Assembly (NCBI RefSeq): GCF_000737325.1
Contig: NZ_CP011125.1
Location: forward strand, 4,836,001-4,900,000
Direction: 5' to 3'
Origin: Sandaracinus amylolyticus
GTDB lineage: Bacteria > Myxococcota_A > Polyangia > Polyangiales > Sandaracinaceae
Length of the DNA: 64,000 nt
In this document: in pieces, positions 46,724 to 53,130 of the stretch
Layout: the number at the start of each line of letters is the position of its first letter
How positions within the stretch are numbered: the stretch's first letter is position 1
The notes under the pieces: generated by a model
Seen by the model: the letters and a program-made list of their open reading frames with translations, nothing else
Told to the model about the DNA's origin: nothing
Database searches by the model: none
Made by a program: the position numbers and the translations under genes

Positions 46724-48076
46724 TCAGCGGTAAGGCGCGAACCGCTCGGCGCTCACGCGCGAGGCGTTGAGCTGCTCGAGCTCGCCGTCGGAGTAGGCGT
46801 CGGCGGAGCCTTCGGGGAGCTCCTCGCGCACGAAGCGCTCGATCGCGTCGCGCGCGGTGCGGCCCACCTCGTCCTCGCTGGCGTCGTCCCACAGCGCGAA
46901 GAGCGCCCGCCGGCGATCGGCCGCGGGGCCCGAGCCCGCCCAGATGCGCCGCACGCGCGCGCGCAGCCGGGACAGCGCCGCGGCGCGCTCGCGCGCGGCG
47001 TGCGCGTCGGTCAGGCGATCGCGGAGCTCCTCGGTCTCCTCGAGGAACCGCAGCCGCTCCGCGAGGTTCGGGTCCTGTCCCGCGGCGCGCATCGCCGCGC
47101 CCTGCGTGTCGAACGTGCCGCCGATGCCGAACGCGGTCCCGGGAGGGGCGATCGTGGCGATCGCTCCGGCCGGCTCGGTGAGGAGCTCGGGCAGCGCGGA
47201 GGTTCCGTCGGGCGCGCGCACCTGGTTCGGATCGACCGAGATCGCGGTCAGCGGATCGAGGATCGGCGCGAGGGGCTCCACGAGCTCGGCGAGCGCGTCG
47301 GGGAGCTCCGGGTCGTGCCGCCGCTCGACCGCCGCGCCCGAGCCGTCGGTCTGCACGGCATCGCGCGCGCCCAGCTCGGCGTGGCCCCGATCCTCGAACT
47401 GCACCGACCCGTCGGGCCGGATGACGGCGGTGAACCCGACGCCGCGATGCACGTAGCTGCCGTCGGACCTGCGCACGAGCTCGATCGCGGTGCGCGTGAC
47501 GTGGGCCTTCGTCATCGCGCGCGCGTGCAGGTCCGCGTCGAGCCGCTGCTCGATCGCGCGCTCTTCGCGTGCCGCGTCCGCTTCGGGCGTGCTCGGCCCG
47601 ATCGACAGCCACGCGCTCGCGACGCGCTCGGGATCGAGCGACGGGAGCTCGCGCGGCGTGTCCGGCGCGGTCGGCGTCGTGTCGGTCGACGGTGCCTCCG
47701 TCGCGGGCCTCGCCGCGCCCAGCGTCGTCCGCGCGTCCGACACGCTCCGATCGACCACCGCACGCGCCGGCGCAGCCCGACGCGCGCGCACGCGCTCGGG
47801 CACGTCGGCGCCGTCCCGCGGGCGAGCGAGCGCGCCTTCCTGCGAGCGCTCGGCGACGCTCAGCTCGAGCACGACGACGTCCGCGACATCGGTGCGCGGG
47901 GCCGTTGGCTCGCCCGAGCGAGCGCTCGGCACGACCGCGATCACGACGACGTGCGCGCCCGCCGAGAGCACCCACGGCAAGAGTCGCGGCCCTGTCGCTC
48001 GTGCCTGCACGTCGGGACCTGAGCACGCCGCGCGCTCAGTCCATTCCCGCGCCTCGGGCGCGGCGGCGCGGATCAA
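46724..48076 (-). CDS. TonB-like single-span protein of unknown function
   Basis: The product has 450 residues. A short cytoplasmic start, one span (about 32-50; LPWVLSAGAHVVVIAVV) and a Pro/Ala/Thr/Asp-rich stretch follow the layout of TonB/energy-transducer proteins. The periplasmic part has a beta-like segment (YVHRGVGFTAVIRPDGSVQF) and a long helix (AERLRFLEETEELRDRLTDA) and ends in RDAIERFVREELPEGSADAY. The TonB C-terminal fold is not evident. The frame opens with TTG 48076, which shares TTGA with the stop of the L,D-transpeptidase gene; GTG 48013 just before the span is an alternative. Coupling to the transpeptidase suggests an envelope role. Confidence 0.75.
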   Translation of the reverse strand: MIRAAAPEAREWTERAACSGPDVQARATGPRLLPWVLSAGAHVVVIAVVPSARSGEPTAPRTDVADVVVLELSVAERSQEGALARPRDGADVPERVRARRAAPARAVVDRSVSDARTTLGAARPATEAPSTDTTPTAPDTPRELPSLDPERVASAWLSIGPSTPEADAAREERAIEQRLDADLHARAMTKAHVTRTAIELVRRSDGSYVHRGVGFTAVIRPDGSVQFEDRGHAELGARDAVQTDGSGAAVERRHDPELPDALAELVEPLAPILDPLTAISVDPNQVRAPDGTSALPELLTEPAGAIATIAPPGTAFGIGGTFDTQGAAMRAAGQDPNLAERLRFLEETEELRDRLTDAHAARERAAALSRLRARVRRIWAGSGPAADRRRALFALWDDASEDEVGRTARDAIERFVREELPEGSADAYSDGELEQLNASRVSAERFAPYR

Positions 48077-49671
48077 TCAGTCACGTGGATCCACGTCCCC
48101 GGCCGGCGCGGCAGCGTGATCACCCCGTGCCATCCGGGCGGCAGCGCCGGCGTCGTCCACTGGAACAGCCAGCGCGCGTCCGCGGGCGCGAGGTTCACGC
48201 AGCCGTGGCTCCGCACGTGCCCGAAGTGGTCGTGCCAGAACGCTCCGTGCAGCGCGTAGCTGCCCTCGAAGTACATGGTCCACGGCACGTCTTCGATGCT
48301 GTACGCCTCGGTGGCCGAGTCGGGGTCGTCCATCGTCGTCGACACGTGCTTGCTCTGGATGCGGAACGTGCCGACCGGCGTCTCGTAGCCCGCGCGCCCC
48401 GTCGACACGAGCGTCGCGAACACCGGCACGTCGCCCTCGTACGCGACCAGCGTCTGCTCGCCGCGATCGACGTGGATCCAGCGCTCGCCCTCCCCGACGC
48501 CCGCCGGGCGCGGGATCACCGGCACGATGCGCAGCGCGCTCTCGCGGATCACCCGCCCGTCGCGCGCGATCCGGTACCGCGAGCCGCGCCGCTCCAGCAC
48601 CTCGTCCTCGAGGAGCAGCGGCGTGTGGAACTCCACCGCGTCGCTCTGCGTGAGCGCGCCGCTCACCGCATCGCGCACCAGCGCGCGCACGCCGCGGCGA
48701 TAGACGAACGCGAGCGGCGGGCGCCACTCGCCGCCCAGCACGACGCCGCGCATCGCGGGCGGCTGCGCCTCCGCGAGCACCCCGGCGGGCACGTACGTGC
48801 CGCGCACCGTGCGGAAGAACGCGCGCTCGCCGTCGAGCTCCTCGCGATCGATGCTGACGTAGAACCCGCGCAGCATGCGCATGCGCAGGAACGACGGGAG
48901 CGTCGGGCCCTCGGGCACGCCGGCGTCGGCGCTCGCCTCGAGCGTCGGCGCCACCACGCCCGGCGGCGCCTCGAGATCGGGCTCGGCGCTCGGCGCACCG
49001 ACCTCGGTGACCGCGGCCGCGCGCGCCGCGGCCTGCGCGCGCAGCGACTCGATCATCGTGCCGGCCTCGCGCTCCTCGGCGACGCTGGGGATGCGCCAGT
49101 ACTGCGGCGCGTCCTCGCGGGCGACGTAGGCGTACGCGTAGGGCAGCGCGTCGTGCAGCGCCGCCGGCACCGGCGACGGCTCGAAGCTCTGCGGCCCCTG
49201 CCCGAGCAAGAAGCCCTCGCCGCGGCACACGAAGCCGCCTCCCACGACCTCGTGCCATCCGCGCGCGCACCCGGGACCGCGCAGCCCCTCCTTCGCGCGG
49301 AAGCGCGAGCCGCGACGGACGTAGCCGATCACCGGGCTCGTCACGTCGGGGCGCGCGCGGACCTGCGCGAGGAAGTGATACGCGATGCCGTGGAGCGGCC
49401 ACTCCGCCTCGAACGCGGCGCGCGCCGCTTCCTCGCGGGCGCGCGCCTCGGCCTCGGCGTCGTGGGGTGGTGCCGGCGGCGGCGGCGCGGGGGGCGGCGG
49501 GAGCACCACGGGCGCGGGCTCGATCACGGGCTCGACGGCGACGGGCTCGGTGTCGACCACCGGAGCCGCCGTGATGGACGCGTCGACCGCGCTCCCATCG
49601 TCGAGGACCGTGTCGCACGCGCCGAGCCCCGCGATCGACGCCGCGAGCAGGAGTGTGCGAGCCATCCGCAT
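48073..49671 (-). CDS. L,D-transpeptidase (YkuD) lipoprotein
   Basis: L,D-transpeptidases form 3-3 peptidoglycan crosslinks or attach proteins to the wall. The 532-residue protein has a lipobox GLGAC (Cys19), a Pro-rich tether, an SH3-like segment (RARPDVTSPVIGYVRRGSRF), a middle region of unknown fold, and a C-terminal YkuD domain with the catalytic motif SHGCVNL preceded by HGAFWHDHFGH and by the strand RAGYETPVGTFRI. Start 49671 (or 49665) lies right before the signal peptide with GGAG upstream. The frame stays open to 50085 through the hairpin array, but that stretch is not protein-like. Translationally coupled to the TonB-like gene. Confidence 0.93.
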   Translation of the reverse strand: MRMARTLLLAASIAGLGACDTVLDDGSAVDASITAAPVVDTEPVAVEPVIEPAPVVLPPPPAPPPPAPPHDAEAEARAREEAARAAFEAEWPLHGIAYHFLAQVRARPDVTSPVIGYVRRGSRFRAKEGLRGPGCARGWHEVVGGGFVCRGEGFLLGQGPQSFEPSPVPAALHDALPYAYAYVAREDAPQYWRIPSVAEEREAGTMIESLRAQAAARAAAVTEVGAPSAEPDLEAPPGVVAPTLEASADAGVPEGPTLPSFLRMRMLRGFYVSIDREELDGERAFFRTVRGTYVPAGVLAEAQPPAMRGVVLGGEWRPPLAFVYRRGVRALVRDAVSGALTQSDAVEFHTPLLLEDEVLERRGSRYRIARDGRVIRESALRIVPVIPRPAGVGEGERWIHVDRGEQTLVAYEGDVPVFATLVSTGRAGYETPVGTFRIQSKHVSTTMDDPDSATEAYSIEDVPWTMYFEGSYALHGAFWHDHFGHVRSHGCVNLAPADARWLFQWTTPALPPGWHGVITLPRRPGTWIHVTD

Positions 49672-49909: not shown

Positions 49910-50233
49910 CGCCCGTCAGAGCTGACGGGTGCCTCTTCGACATCCGACGACCCACCCGTCAGGGCGGACGGGTGCCTCTTCGACATCCGATGACCCACCC
50001 GGTCAGGGCGGACGGGTGCCTCTTCGACATCCGACGACCCACCCGTCAGGGCGGACGGGTGCCTCTTCGACATCCGATGGCGCACCCGTCAGGGCGGACG
50101 GGTGCCTCTTCGACATGCGACGACCCACCCGTCAGGGCTGACGGGTGCATCATCGAGACAAGATGGCGCACCCGTCGGTCCCGGCGGGTGCCTCGCACGG
50201 CTCCGATGACGAGCCCGTCGGCTCGGACGGGTG
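49910..50233. repeat. Tandem array of eight 43-bp units, each with a conserved hairpin
   Basis: Units begin at 49910, 49953, 49996, 50040, 50083, 50126, 50169 and 50212, a spacing of 43 bases throughout except one of 44. The core is CACCCGTC, a 6-base loop, GACGGGTG, then GCCTCTTCGACATCCGA and a linker. Unit 1 and unit 6 lengthen the stem to GTCAG/CTGAC, unit 7 keeps pairing by a T-G wobble, and unit 8 is the most diverged. Both hairpin and linker are conserved in units 2-5. The array starts four bases past the stop codon of the minus-strand esterase gene. Because 43 is not a multiple of three, a repeated peptide is excluded. Confidence 0.95.
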
Positions 50234-50235
50234 CC

Positions 50236-53130
50236 TCAGCGCACGAAGATGCGCGGGTCGTCGGGGCGGGCGTCCACGTGGATGTGGTTCCGGTGTCCCT
50301 CGTTGTAGTTGGGCGTCAGCACCGACGAGAACAGCCGCGACTCCGCGAGCGCGCACGAGATCTCGAGAAGCGCGCGCGCACGTGGCTCCTCCGGCAGCGG
50401 CGCGTCGCAGGTGCGGTGCGCGGGCGTCTCGAGGAAGTGGTCGTACACGCTCAGCAGCGCGCCGCCCTCCTGCTCGAACGCGAAGAGGTCGAGCCCGAGG
50501 CCCATGCGGTGGAAGCTCTGCTGCGGCGAGCTGCGGTGCGCGCTCAGCACGTCGATCGCGCGCACCCCGTGGGCCCGCACGATCTCGGCGACGGCCGGCA
50601 GCCGCGACGCGAGCTCGCACGAGATCACGAGCGGCTCGTCCTCGGGGCGGATCATCCGGAAGTGCACGCCCCCGATCGGCCCGGTGATCACCACCGGCGA
50701 CGGCATCGGCGTGCGCTGCGCCGGCACCGGGCGCGCCGGCACCCCCGCGGTCGGGAGCGCCGCGTAGCACTCGTCCTGCGCGCGCACCTGCCAGACCGCG
50801 CCGCGCTCCACGCGCCACTCGCCGCCCGGGATGATCGCGCGGTAGTTGAGGAACGTCGGGATCTGCGTCGCGATGCGGCGCGCGATGCGCCCCGCGGGGT
50901 CGCTCGCGGGCGCGAGGAAGCGCCGAGGGAGCGGCGGCGCCGCGGGCACCTGCGCGGGCGGCAGCACCGGCGCGGGATCCTGCGCGAGCACCGCGCTCGG
51001 GATCACGAAGTCCGCCGGCGCGCCGATCCGCGCGTTGAGCTCGAGCCTCCGCGCGCGCTCCTCGGGCGTCTCGTCGATCGGCGGCGCTGCGCTCTGCGCG
51101 CCGTCGATCTCGGCCTGCGCGTAGAGGATCTCGCCCTCGCCTCCGCCGAGCACGTCGTGGCGCGCGTCGATGCGCGCGCTCGCGCCGCTCTCCGGCAGCG
51201 CCCACTGATCGTCGAAGAAGCCCTGCGCGAGCTGTCCGTTGCGCCCGCTGATCAGGCGCTGCCGCGTGCGCGTGGTGCGTCCCTCGTAGACGACCCAGTC
51301 GGGCAGGAAGTCCGGCAGGTTGTGCCCGGCGGCGACCGCCTCGACCGTCGGCGCCGCCTGTACGATGACGTAGCGGCTCGGCGCGAGCGGGTTCGGGTAC
51401 ACGAAGCGCGTGCCCACGCCCTGCGCGCGATAGGTGCGCGAGCCGACCTGCACGCCCTCGCTCGTGACGCGGATCGGCAAGCGATCCTGCATGCGCTCGA
51501 TCAGCGCGTTCGAGCCCGGCGTGCCGTAGAGCACGAGGTGCGAGCGCGCCATCATCGCGTCGGTCACGTCGGTGTCCGCGACCACGCGCTGCTGGTGCTG
51601 CCAGAGCCAGAGCGGCCATCCGCGCGCGCCGCGCTGCGCGGCCTCGCGCAGCGCCTCGGTGCGCTCGGGATCGCGCGTGCCGTACACGTGGATCATCCCG
51701 TCGCGATACGGATCGGTCAGCGGCCCCGAGAGCCCCGGCACCTTCTCGAGCCGCCCCTCCTCGCGCGGGAGGAACCCGAGGCGCCACGCGCCGTCGACGC
51801 GCGACAGATGGATCACGTGACCGAGCGGACCGCGCGCGCCGCGATACACCTCCGCGCCGTCGGCGCTGATGCGCAGCACGTCGCCCTCGCCCACCGGTGC
51901 GTCGCGCAGATCGAGCGCGACCTCGCGCGCGTGCTCGGTCTCGATCGTGATCGCGCCCTCCTCGGCGTGGGCGCGCACCTTCGCGAGCCGCGGGTACCCC
52001 TCGATGCGCGTGATCGTGACCCAGTGCTGGCGGTTGGCGCGGTAGTCGGCGCTCACCACGCGCACGTCGGCGGGGCGCGACTGCTGGGTGAACTGGGCCC
52101 AGTCGGGGTACGCGCGGCCGTGGCGGTGCACGAGGTAGAGCAGGTCGTGCCCGAAGTCGTACCAGCGCACGCGAGGCTCGAGCCCGAGCCCGCGCATGTG
52201 CTCCTCCATCTCGGTCACGTAGCGCGGGCGCATCGGGCCGGGATCGCGCGAGCCGTGGAAGAAGCGGAACTCGGTGTTCAGCGAGTTCTCGACGAGGTGC
52301 ATGCCGCTGACCTGGTGGAGCAGGCGCATCTCGTCGCTCGTCGGCGAGCCGCCCGCGTACTGCACCCAGCTCGGCGCGCCCGCGATCGCCATGACCATCG
52401 AGAAGCGCCACGCGTGGCGCATGCCGATCGCGTACGCGCCGAGCCCGCCGTTGCTGAGCCCACCGAGCACGACGCGGCTCGCATCGACCGAGTAGTGGCG
52501 CTGCACGTCGTCGACGACGTCGAGCACGTCCTGCTCGCCCATCCATCGCCACAGCACCTGACCGAACCCGTCGGGCGCGACGACGATCCACTCGGGGGAC
52601 CAGCGCGGCTCGTACTCGTCCCACAGGTGCTGCGAGTACGTGAGCCAGTCCATGTTGTTCCCCATGACGACGCCGAGGAACAGGTTCCCGTTGCTCGATC
52701 CGCCGTGCATCATGATCAGCAGCGGATAGCGGCGGCTCGGGTCGTAGTTCGGCGGCAGGTAGATCGCGTATCCCTGGCGCGTCTCCGAGACCGGCGAGAC
52801 GTAACCGCGGTTCGTGATGCGATTCGCTTCGCCCACGTAGGGGTCGCGGCCCTCGCGCACCGCCGCGAGATAACGCGCGGCCGTGGCGCGCCAGCGCGCG
52901 GACTGCGGCCCTTCGCCGCGCTCGATCCGCTCCGCGACGTCGAGCAGGTACTCGATGCTCGTGAGCGTGCCCTCGGGGACGGCGGCGGGGCGCGACGTGC
53001 GCAGCCGTGCGACCTCCTCTCGCATGGAGGCGACGGTGGGCGGCGCGTCCTGCGCAGCGACCTCGGACGCAGGAACGACGAGCAGCGCAACGACCGCGAG
53101 CAACGCGAACCACAACGAGCTTCGGATCAT
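50236..53130 (-). CDS. Secreted fusion of alpha/beta-hydrolase and extensin/M15-like peptidase domain
   Basis: The product has 964 residues. ATG 53130 opens a signal peptide (LWFALLAVVALLVVPASEVA). The N-terminal half is an esterase-type hydrolase: IYLPPNYDPSRRYPLLIMMH with HGG, VVAPDGFGQ, nucleophile motif GGLSNGG (about 222-228) and GSRDPGPMRP. A middle part of unknown fold follows (about 400-800). The C-terminal 150 residues are extensin-like/M15-like, with the zinc-site pattern SFHRMGLGLDL (about 872) and HRNHIHVD (about 947), plus CELASRLP and CDAP cysteines. M15 enzymes cut peptidoglycan peptides. The fusion suggests an envelope enzyme acting on an esterified wall or polymer. The longer frame to 53358 has no signal and was rejected. 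Confidence 0.88.
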   Translation of the reverse strand: MIRSSLWFALLAVVALLVVPASEVAAQDAPPTVASMREEVARLRTSRPAAVPEGTLTSIEYLLDVAERIERGEGPQSARWRATAARYLAAVREGRDPYVGEANRITNRGYVSPVSETRQGYAIYLPPNYDPSRRYPLLIMMHGGSSNGNLFLGVVMGNNMDWLTYSQHLWDEYEPRWSPEWIVVAPDGFGQVLWRWMGEQDVLDVVDDVQRHYSVDASRVVLGGLSNGGLGAYAIGMRHAWRFSMVMAIAGAPSWVQYAGGSPTSDEMRLLHQVSGMHLVENSLNTEFRFFHGSRDPGPMRPRYVTEMEEHMRGLGLEPRVRWYDFGHDLLYLVHRHGRAYPDWAQFTQQSRPADVRVVSADYRANRQHWVTITRIEGYPRLAKVRAHAEEGAITIETEHAREVALDLRDAPVGEGDVLRISADGAEVYRGARGPLGHVIHLSRVDGAWRLGFLPREEGRLEKVPGLSGPLTDPYRDGMIHVYGTRDPERTEALREAAQRGARGWPLWLWQHQQRVVADTDVTDAMMARSHLVLYGTPGSNALIERMQDRLPIRVTSEGVQVGSRTYRAQGVGTRFVYPNPLAPSRYVIVQAAPTVEAVAAGHNLPDFLPDWVVYEGRTTRTRQRLISGRNGQLAQGFFDDQWALPESGASARIDARHDVLGGGEGEILYAQAEIDGAQSAAPPIDETPEERARRLELNARIGAPADFVIPSAVLAQDPAPVLPPAQVPAAPPLPRRFLAPASDPAGRIARRIATQIPTFLNYRAIIPGGEWRVERGAVWQVRAQDECYAALPTAGVPARPVPAQRTPMPSPVVITGPIGGVHFRMIRPEDEPLVISCELASRLPAVAEIVRAHGVRAIDVLSAHRSSPQQSFHRMGLGLDLFAFEQEGGALLSVYDHFLETPAHRTCDAPLPEEPRARALLEISCALAESRLFSSVLTPNYNEGHRNHIHVDARPDDPRIFVR

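What the first reader, a model, noticed from the sequence alone, without database searches (positions are those of the whole stretch)
49910..50233. Eight-unit 43-bp hairpin array between two cell-wall genes
Each unit carries a CACCCGTC/GACGGGTG stem plus a conserved linker. Stem changes are compensated: units 1 and 6 gain two extra pairs, unit 7 keeps pairing by wobble. The period is fixed at 43 bases (one 44), close to four helical turns, and the array begins four bases after a stop codon. It is not coding because the frame rotates. It could be a multiplied terminator, a multi-hairpin RNA, or a phased protein-binding array. Units far from the gene (2-5) are the most alike, as if expansion occurred there.
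Basis: seen in the sequence. Interest (0 to 1): 0.82.

Follow-up and report, generated by a model that had tools for sequence, protein, structure and literature searches.

The report
Helically phased extragenic dyad-repeat array
The repeat array is real, and it is one of an estimated 200 intergenic arrays in this soil bacterium that have unrelated sequences yet mostly repeat every 41-43 bases (about four DNA turns), usually just after genes; why so many unrelated repeats share one spacing is not explained.

Summary
In detail: eight 43-bp units (one 44) lie between two minus-strand genes. The RNA-hairpin reading gets no support: stem changes are one-sided and covariation equals shuffled controls. 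Each unit is two alternating dyads (22 + 21 bp, centres 21.5 bp apart), i.e. a ~21-bp monomer in alternating orientation.

The larger finding: in 1.26 Mb sampled, non-coding tandem arrays cluster at period 41-43 bp (15 of 38 with period >=27) plus multiples (82-87, 125). In a sister species 8 of 9 fit. 34 arrays of this period fall into 25 sequence families. 27 of 41 arrays tested are self-reverse-complementary beyond a column-shuffled null. They favour convergent gene ends (pooled P = 2e-8) and avoid promoters. Orthologous loci show copy-number change, concerted drift, family exchange and one 2-bp empty site.

Best reading: a REP/BIME-like extragenic dyad array without RAYT transposase, acting (inferred) as DNA at gene 3' ends. 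Rivals: a duplication ruler with no function, or RNA 3'-end hairpins. A shared two/four-turn period across unrelated sequences is the novel point. Mechanism unproven.

The parts
49910..50252 (.). Tandem array, eight units of 43 bp (unit 3 is 44 bp); the last half-unit overlaps the 3' end of the right-hand gene
   Evidence: TRF, unit table
49910..49931 (.). Dyad A of unit 1 (CGCCCGTCAGAGCTGACGGGTG)
49953..49974 (.). Dyad A of unit 2
   Evidence: exact pattern hit
49996..50018 (.). Dyad A of unit 3, with one inserted G
50040..50061 (.). Dyad A of unit 4
50083..50104 (.). Dyad A of unit 5
50126..50147 (.). Dyad A of unit 6
50169..50190 (.). Dyad A of unit 7
50212..50233 (.). Dyad A of unit 8, two bases from the stop codon of the right-hand gene
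49932..49952 (.). Dyad B (second, degenerate dyad) of unit 1; repeated in every unit between successive A dyads
50236..53025 (-). Esterase / extensin-like C-terminal domain gene; its 3' end abuts the array
   Evidence: gene model, Pfam PF00756 and PF06904
48073..49665 (-). L,D-transpeptidase (YkuD) gene downstream of the array
   Evidence: gene model, Pfam PF03734

Best explanation
The array belongs to a class of extragenic, REP/BIME-like dyad arrays found in both Sandaracinus genomes sampled. SHOWN: many of these arrays are built from ~21-bp quasi-monomers, usually in alternating orientation, so the tandem period is 41-43 bp; they lie mostly at gene 3' ends, especially between convergent genes; they change unit number and drift in concert between species; and a given unit family can occupy different loci. 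INFERRED: they act as double-stranded DNA rather than as RNA. Dyads set every two helical turns face one side of the duplex and form a docking or topology site (for gyrase or another nucleoid protein, or as dyads that extrude under supercoiling) where transcription of the flanking genes piles up supercoils. INFERRED: new arrays arise by local tandem duplication whose step is held near 42 bp by duplex geometry or by selection for phasing, and by occasional copying of arrays to new sites. The functional step is the weakest (about 0.35 on its own).
For: Period peak at 41-43 bp and multiples in non-coding arrays of two species. 34 arrays fall into 25 sequence families, so the period is not inherited from one sequence. 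Self-reverse-complementarity above a column-shuffled null in 27 of 41. Dyad-centre spacing 19.5-22.5 bp in 34 and 40-44 bp in 37 of 86. Even harmonics of the unit raised against intergenic controls. Convergent enrichment and divergent depletion. No covariation and no G.U bias. Species differences at orthologous loci. Literature: REPs lie mostly between tandem and convergent genes (PMC3733652); gyrase cleaves BIME-2 in vivo and has a motif with 10-bp phased G/C content (PMC6379681).
Against: No protein is known to bind. Unrelated sequences argue against any single sequence-specific binder. About a third of the arrays have no detectable dyad but share the period. The 10.5-bp purine signal is matched by an equal 7-bp one. 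The sister species lacks the array at secA, so it is dispensable there.
Confidence: 0.45

Rival explanations
1. Neutral minisatellites made by a mutational ruler. A duplication process (slippage or hairpin-templated copying) with a preferred ~21/42-bp step makes arrays anywhere; they survive only where harmless, i.e. downstream of genes. The dyads are a by-product of inverted copying. There is no function.
For: Copy number and sequence turn over between sister species; one site is empty; substitutions break pairs as if unconstrained; avoidance of divergent regions is what purifying selection on promoters would give; L122 grew from about two to six units.
Against: Convergent regions are enriched well beyond tandem ones, although both are promoter-poor in part. 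No known mechanism has a 42-bp step that ignores sequence.
Confidence: 0.3
2. RNA-level element: tandem hairpins at mRNA 3' ends act as bidirectional terminators or as exonuclease blocks. Any sequence serves as long as it folds.
For: Location after stop codons and between convergent genes; dyad A folds at about -16 to -20 kcal/mol in many units; explains unrelated sequences.
Against: No covariation, no G.U excess, no T-run, arrays without dyads with the same period, and no reason for a fixed 41-43 period.
Confidence: 0.15
3. Centromere-like protein array similar to F-plasmid parS/sopC, or a remnant of a plasmid.
For: Same 43-bp unit length with an inverted repeat in most units; F parS is twelve 43-bp tandem repeats containing ten 16-bp inverted repeats (PMC6238139).
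Against: Four chromosomal arrays of this unit, no plasmid or phage match, the flanking genes identified are not par genes, and other arrays share the period but not the sequence.
Confidence: 0.04

Closest known systems
REP / BIME elements (bacterial interspersed mosaic elements)
   Same: Extragenic dyads in alternating orientation at regular spacing, between tandem or convergent genes, species-specific (PMC2817692; PMC3733652).
   Different: No Y1/RAYT transposase detected; the window's unit has only four loci rather than hundreds; many unrelated unit sequences share one period; no GTAG/CGTC tag at the foot of the dyad.
F-plasmid centromere parS (sopC)
   Same: 43-bp direct repeats with an inverted repeat (PMC6238139).
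   Different: Chromosomal, four loci, two dyads per unit, no plasmid match, no par genes among the flanking genes identified.
Bacterial VNTR / minisatellites
   Same: Intergenic tandem arrays whose copy number differs between related genomes.
   Different: I know of no shared period across unrelated sequences, and literature searches found none.
Borg tandem repeats (PMC9879509)
   Same: Rapidly evolving, independently arising direct repeats with unrelated sequences (abstract).
   Different: Those lie in archaeal extrachromosomal elements; only the abstract was read, and a shared unit length is not mentioned there.

Membership tests
REP/BIME | alternating extragenic palindromes at gene 3' ends | tested here: met
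REP/BIME | cognate RAYT (Y1, PF01797) in the genome | tested here: not met
   0 hits; the control rang in 5 of 14 genomes, E. coli among them
REP/BIME | one sequence family in high copy (>100) | tested here: not met
   this unit has four loci
REP/BIME | GTAG or CGTC tag at the foot of the palindrome | tested here: not met
   dyads start CACCCGTC; CGTC lies inside the stem, not at its foot
REP/BIME | gyrase binding | not testable with these tools
   needs Topo-seq
Known structured RNA (Rfam) | match at gathering score | tested here: not met
   none reached the gathering score
Known structured RNA (Rfam) | covarying stem | tested here: not met
Intrinsic terminator | stem followed by T-run | tested here: not met
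   0 found
CRISPR array | conserved repeats separated by variable spacers | tested here: not met
   both halves of the unit are conserved across units
Plasmid centromere (parS/sopC) | 43-bp tandem units, each with an inverted repeat | tested here: met
   yardstick PMC6238139
Plasmid centromere (parS/sopC) | linked parAB operon / plasmid location | tested here: not met
   flanking genes carry YkuD, esterase, SecA, CAP, EamA, amidase and FHA/sigma-54 domains, one has no Pfam match; no plasmid match

The most novel reading that the evidence does not exclude
In Sandaracinus the length of intergenic tandem repeats is quantised: unrelated sequences become ~21-bp quasi-monomers in 41-43-bp units, so some cellular activity either measures out two or four helical turns when duplicating DNA, or selects arrays by phase rather than by sequence.
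Probability: 0.4. Interest if true: 0.85.

Novelty: new variant of a known kind. Interest (0 to 1): 0.62.

Why it matters
Bacterial minisatellites are usually treated as sequence accidents of variable unit length. Many unrelated arrays in one genus sharing a unit length, a dyad pitch and a gene-end location point to a common generator or a common reader of DNA geometry. The question is directly testable: copy-number change, gyrase or protein occupancy, and array deletion can each separate a duplication ruler from a functional gene-end element.

Tried and rejected
Rfam search: three hits, all below gathering score; one overlaps the L011 array (MIR1883, a microRNA precursor family, 39.5 bits against a cut-off of 128) and is not credible. 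Phage, plasmid and viral-contig searches: nothing; bacterial genomes: one isolated pattern hit in a Lentisphaeria MAG, about what chance gives. Nucleotide search of 55 relatives: no other array of this sequence, only short weak hits in three genomes. A weak fifth covariance-model hit at 8897118 was read and shows no tandem units. The first circular reflection test was too strict for unequal linkers and was replaced by local self-reverse-complement scoring. The 82-88-bp 'CTACCGTCCGCGCG...' repeat family (L100, L115, L120, L121, L069, L141) lacks a 41-bp sub-period; it was left out of the dyad-spacing and family counts, but it is included in the period, context and 41-array dyad counts. Helical phasing as such: the 10.5-bp purine signal is significant but the 7-bp one is equally strong, so it is not claimed as proof. 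Transposon-like insertion with target duplication at secA: none seen.

Full report
WHAT IS THERE. The array is as described: eight units starting at 49910, 49953, 49996, 50040, 50083, 50126, 50169 and 50212, period 43 with one 44-bp unit. The genome is a single 10,327,335-bp chromosome; the size fits Sandaracinus amylolyticus (10.33 Mb, PMC5010890), an inference. Both neighbours are on the minus strand: an L,D-transpeptidase (48073-49665) and an esterase/extensin-like protein (50236-53025) whose stop codon lies 2 bases from the last dyad. The array therefore sits at a gene's 3' end.

ANATOMY. Each unit holds two dyads: A, CACCCGTC-MGNNCK-GACGGGTG (22 bp), and B, CCTCTTCGA-NNN-TCGAAGAGG (21 bp; degenerate in the window, clean in sister arrays), with centres 21.5 bp apart. 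Equivalently, a ~21-bp monomer alternates in orientation, which is why the array also matches itself on the other strand. The same unit forms three more arrays, at 6169720 (between a CAP-domain gene and secA, convergent), 6813489 (between an EamA transporter and an amidase) and 2546871 (between a 256-aa gene with no Pfam match and an FHA/sigma-54 activator), each downstream of a gene's stop codon. No other array of this sequence was found in 55 relatives, in phages, plasmids or viral contigs; bacterial genomes gave one chance-level pattern match.

NO SIGN OF A COVARYING RNA. Across 29 units, pairing equals the expectation from independent columns, and the 9/14 column pair is mostly mismatched. 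A formal count gives 80.0% paired cells and covariation 0.098, against 80.2% and 0.101 in shuffles. Wobble pairs in the transcribed sense are not in excess (G.U 23, A.C 20). No T-run terminator was found, and Rfam gave only sub-threshold hits.

A GENOME-WIDE CLASS. I sampled sixty further 20-kb stretches (1.26 Mb with the window), built a codon-usage gene model and ran TRF. Non-coding arrays pile up at 41 (7), 42 (6) and 43 (2) bp, at 82-87 (9) and at 125. Against a flat 27-160 range the 41-43 class has P = 2e-15; this treats arrays as independent, and a few are related. In sister species G002, 8 of 9 non-coding arrays have periods of 41-43, 84, 86 or 124; the ninth is 88. All-against-all blastn puts 34 arrays (from G000, G002 and one G007 array) into 25 sequence families. 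Smaller samples of other relatives show few or none, apart from one strongly dyadic array with a 41-bp period in G007 (L219). At ~20 per Mb the chromosome should hold about 200 (extrapolation).

DYADS AND PITCH. 27 of 41 arrays are self-reverse-complementary beyond a null that permutes columns within the unit. Neighbouring dyad centres lie 19.5-22.5 bp apart in 34, and 40-44 bp apart in 37, of the 86 spacings up to 60 bp. Even harmonics of the unit are raised against ordinary intergenic windows, showing a ~21-bp quasi-monomer inside the 42-bp unit; the purine signal at 10.5 bp is significant, but so is one at 7 bp. An array without dyads (L103) still consists of two ~20.5-bp direct half-units, read by eye.

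CONTEXT. Arrays with period near 42 or its multiples lie in 12 convergent, 10 tandem and 1 divergent intergenic regions, against 58, 255 and 162 overall (convergent P = 1.7e-6, divergent depletion P = 0.001; pooled with G002, convergent P = 2e-8).

DYNAMICS. At the secA locus the sister species has a 2-bp junction where this genome has ~410 bp of array; gain seems likelier than precise loss, but no outgroup could be read. L122 has 5.8 units here and about two diverged ones in G002. L103 has 11 units in both species but clearly diverged, internally homogenised sequence. L106, L109 and L126 keep their unit. The family at L089 here is found in G002 at the L121 locus, so families change places. 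The window's own intergenic region in G002 holds a different, 21-bp, five-copy array found at no other place in that genome.

INTERPRETATION. The closest known kind is the REP/BIME element: alternating palindromes at gene ends (PMC2817692, PMC3733652). Membership fails: no Y1/RAYT transposase, no high-copy family, no foot tag. It can still work like one. In E. coli, BIME-2 are gyrase sites in vivo (PMC6379681), and gene 3' ends, convergent pairs above all, are where positive supercoils collect (established model). I therefore favour a DNA-level, phase-dependent role, but the functional step is inference. A neutral duplication ruler is the strongest rival and accounts better for dyads without covariation. 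The F-plasmid centromere parallel (43-bp units with inverted repeats, PMC6238139) is noted as a likeness of structure only.

LIMITS. The gene model is home-made; 12% of this genome and 4% of the sister were sampled; 'non-coding' calls may include a few missed genes; the statistics assume array independence; the context, period and 41-array dyad counts include the 82-88-bp 'CTACCGTCC...' family, which lacks a 41-bp sub-period. No published description was found in the searches made, which cover open-access papers only.

Noticed in passing
L100:6924-7263, L115:4577-4847, L120:18441-18692, L121:16076-16320, L069:3330-3488, L141:16005-16267: A second dispersed repeat family with 82-88-bp units (CTACCGTCCGCGCGCTTCGCGCGCTCCCGT...GACGAGCACTC) present in both Sandaracinus species; no 41-bp sub-period.
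   Followed up: partly
L048:3360-3490 (G002): Five-copy 21-bp direct array (GGCCCTGTTTCGTCGATCGGC) at the sister species' orthologue of the window's intergenic region; found at no other place in that genome.
   Followed up: partly
L206:1695, 3858, 6881 (G005): Three nearby arrays of one 42-bp unit that may encode a 14-residue peptide repeat.
   Followed up: no
window:60281-60405: 24-bp tandem repeat, five copies (GACGCGGGACCGCCCGACGAGCCC); unit length is a multiple of three, so probably a protein repeat.
   Followed up: no
L219:1468-1702 (G007): Array with a 41-bp period and a long dyad (CACAGTTCAGTTGA...TCAACTGGACTGTG) in another genus of the family, suggesting the class is not confined to Sandaracinus.
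   Followed up: partly
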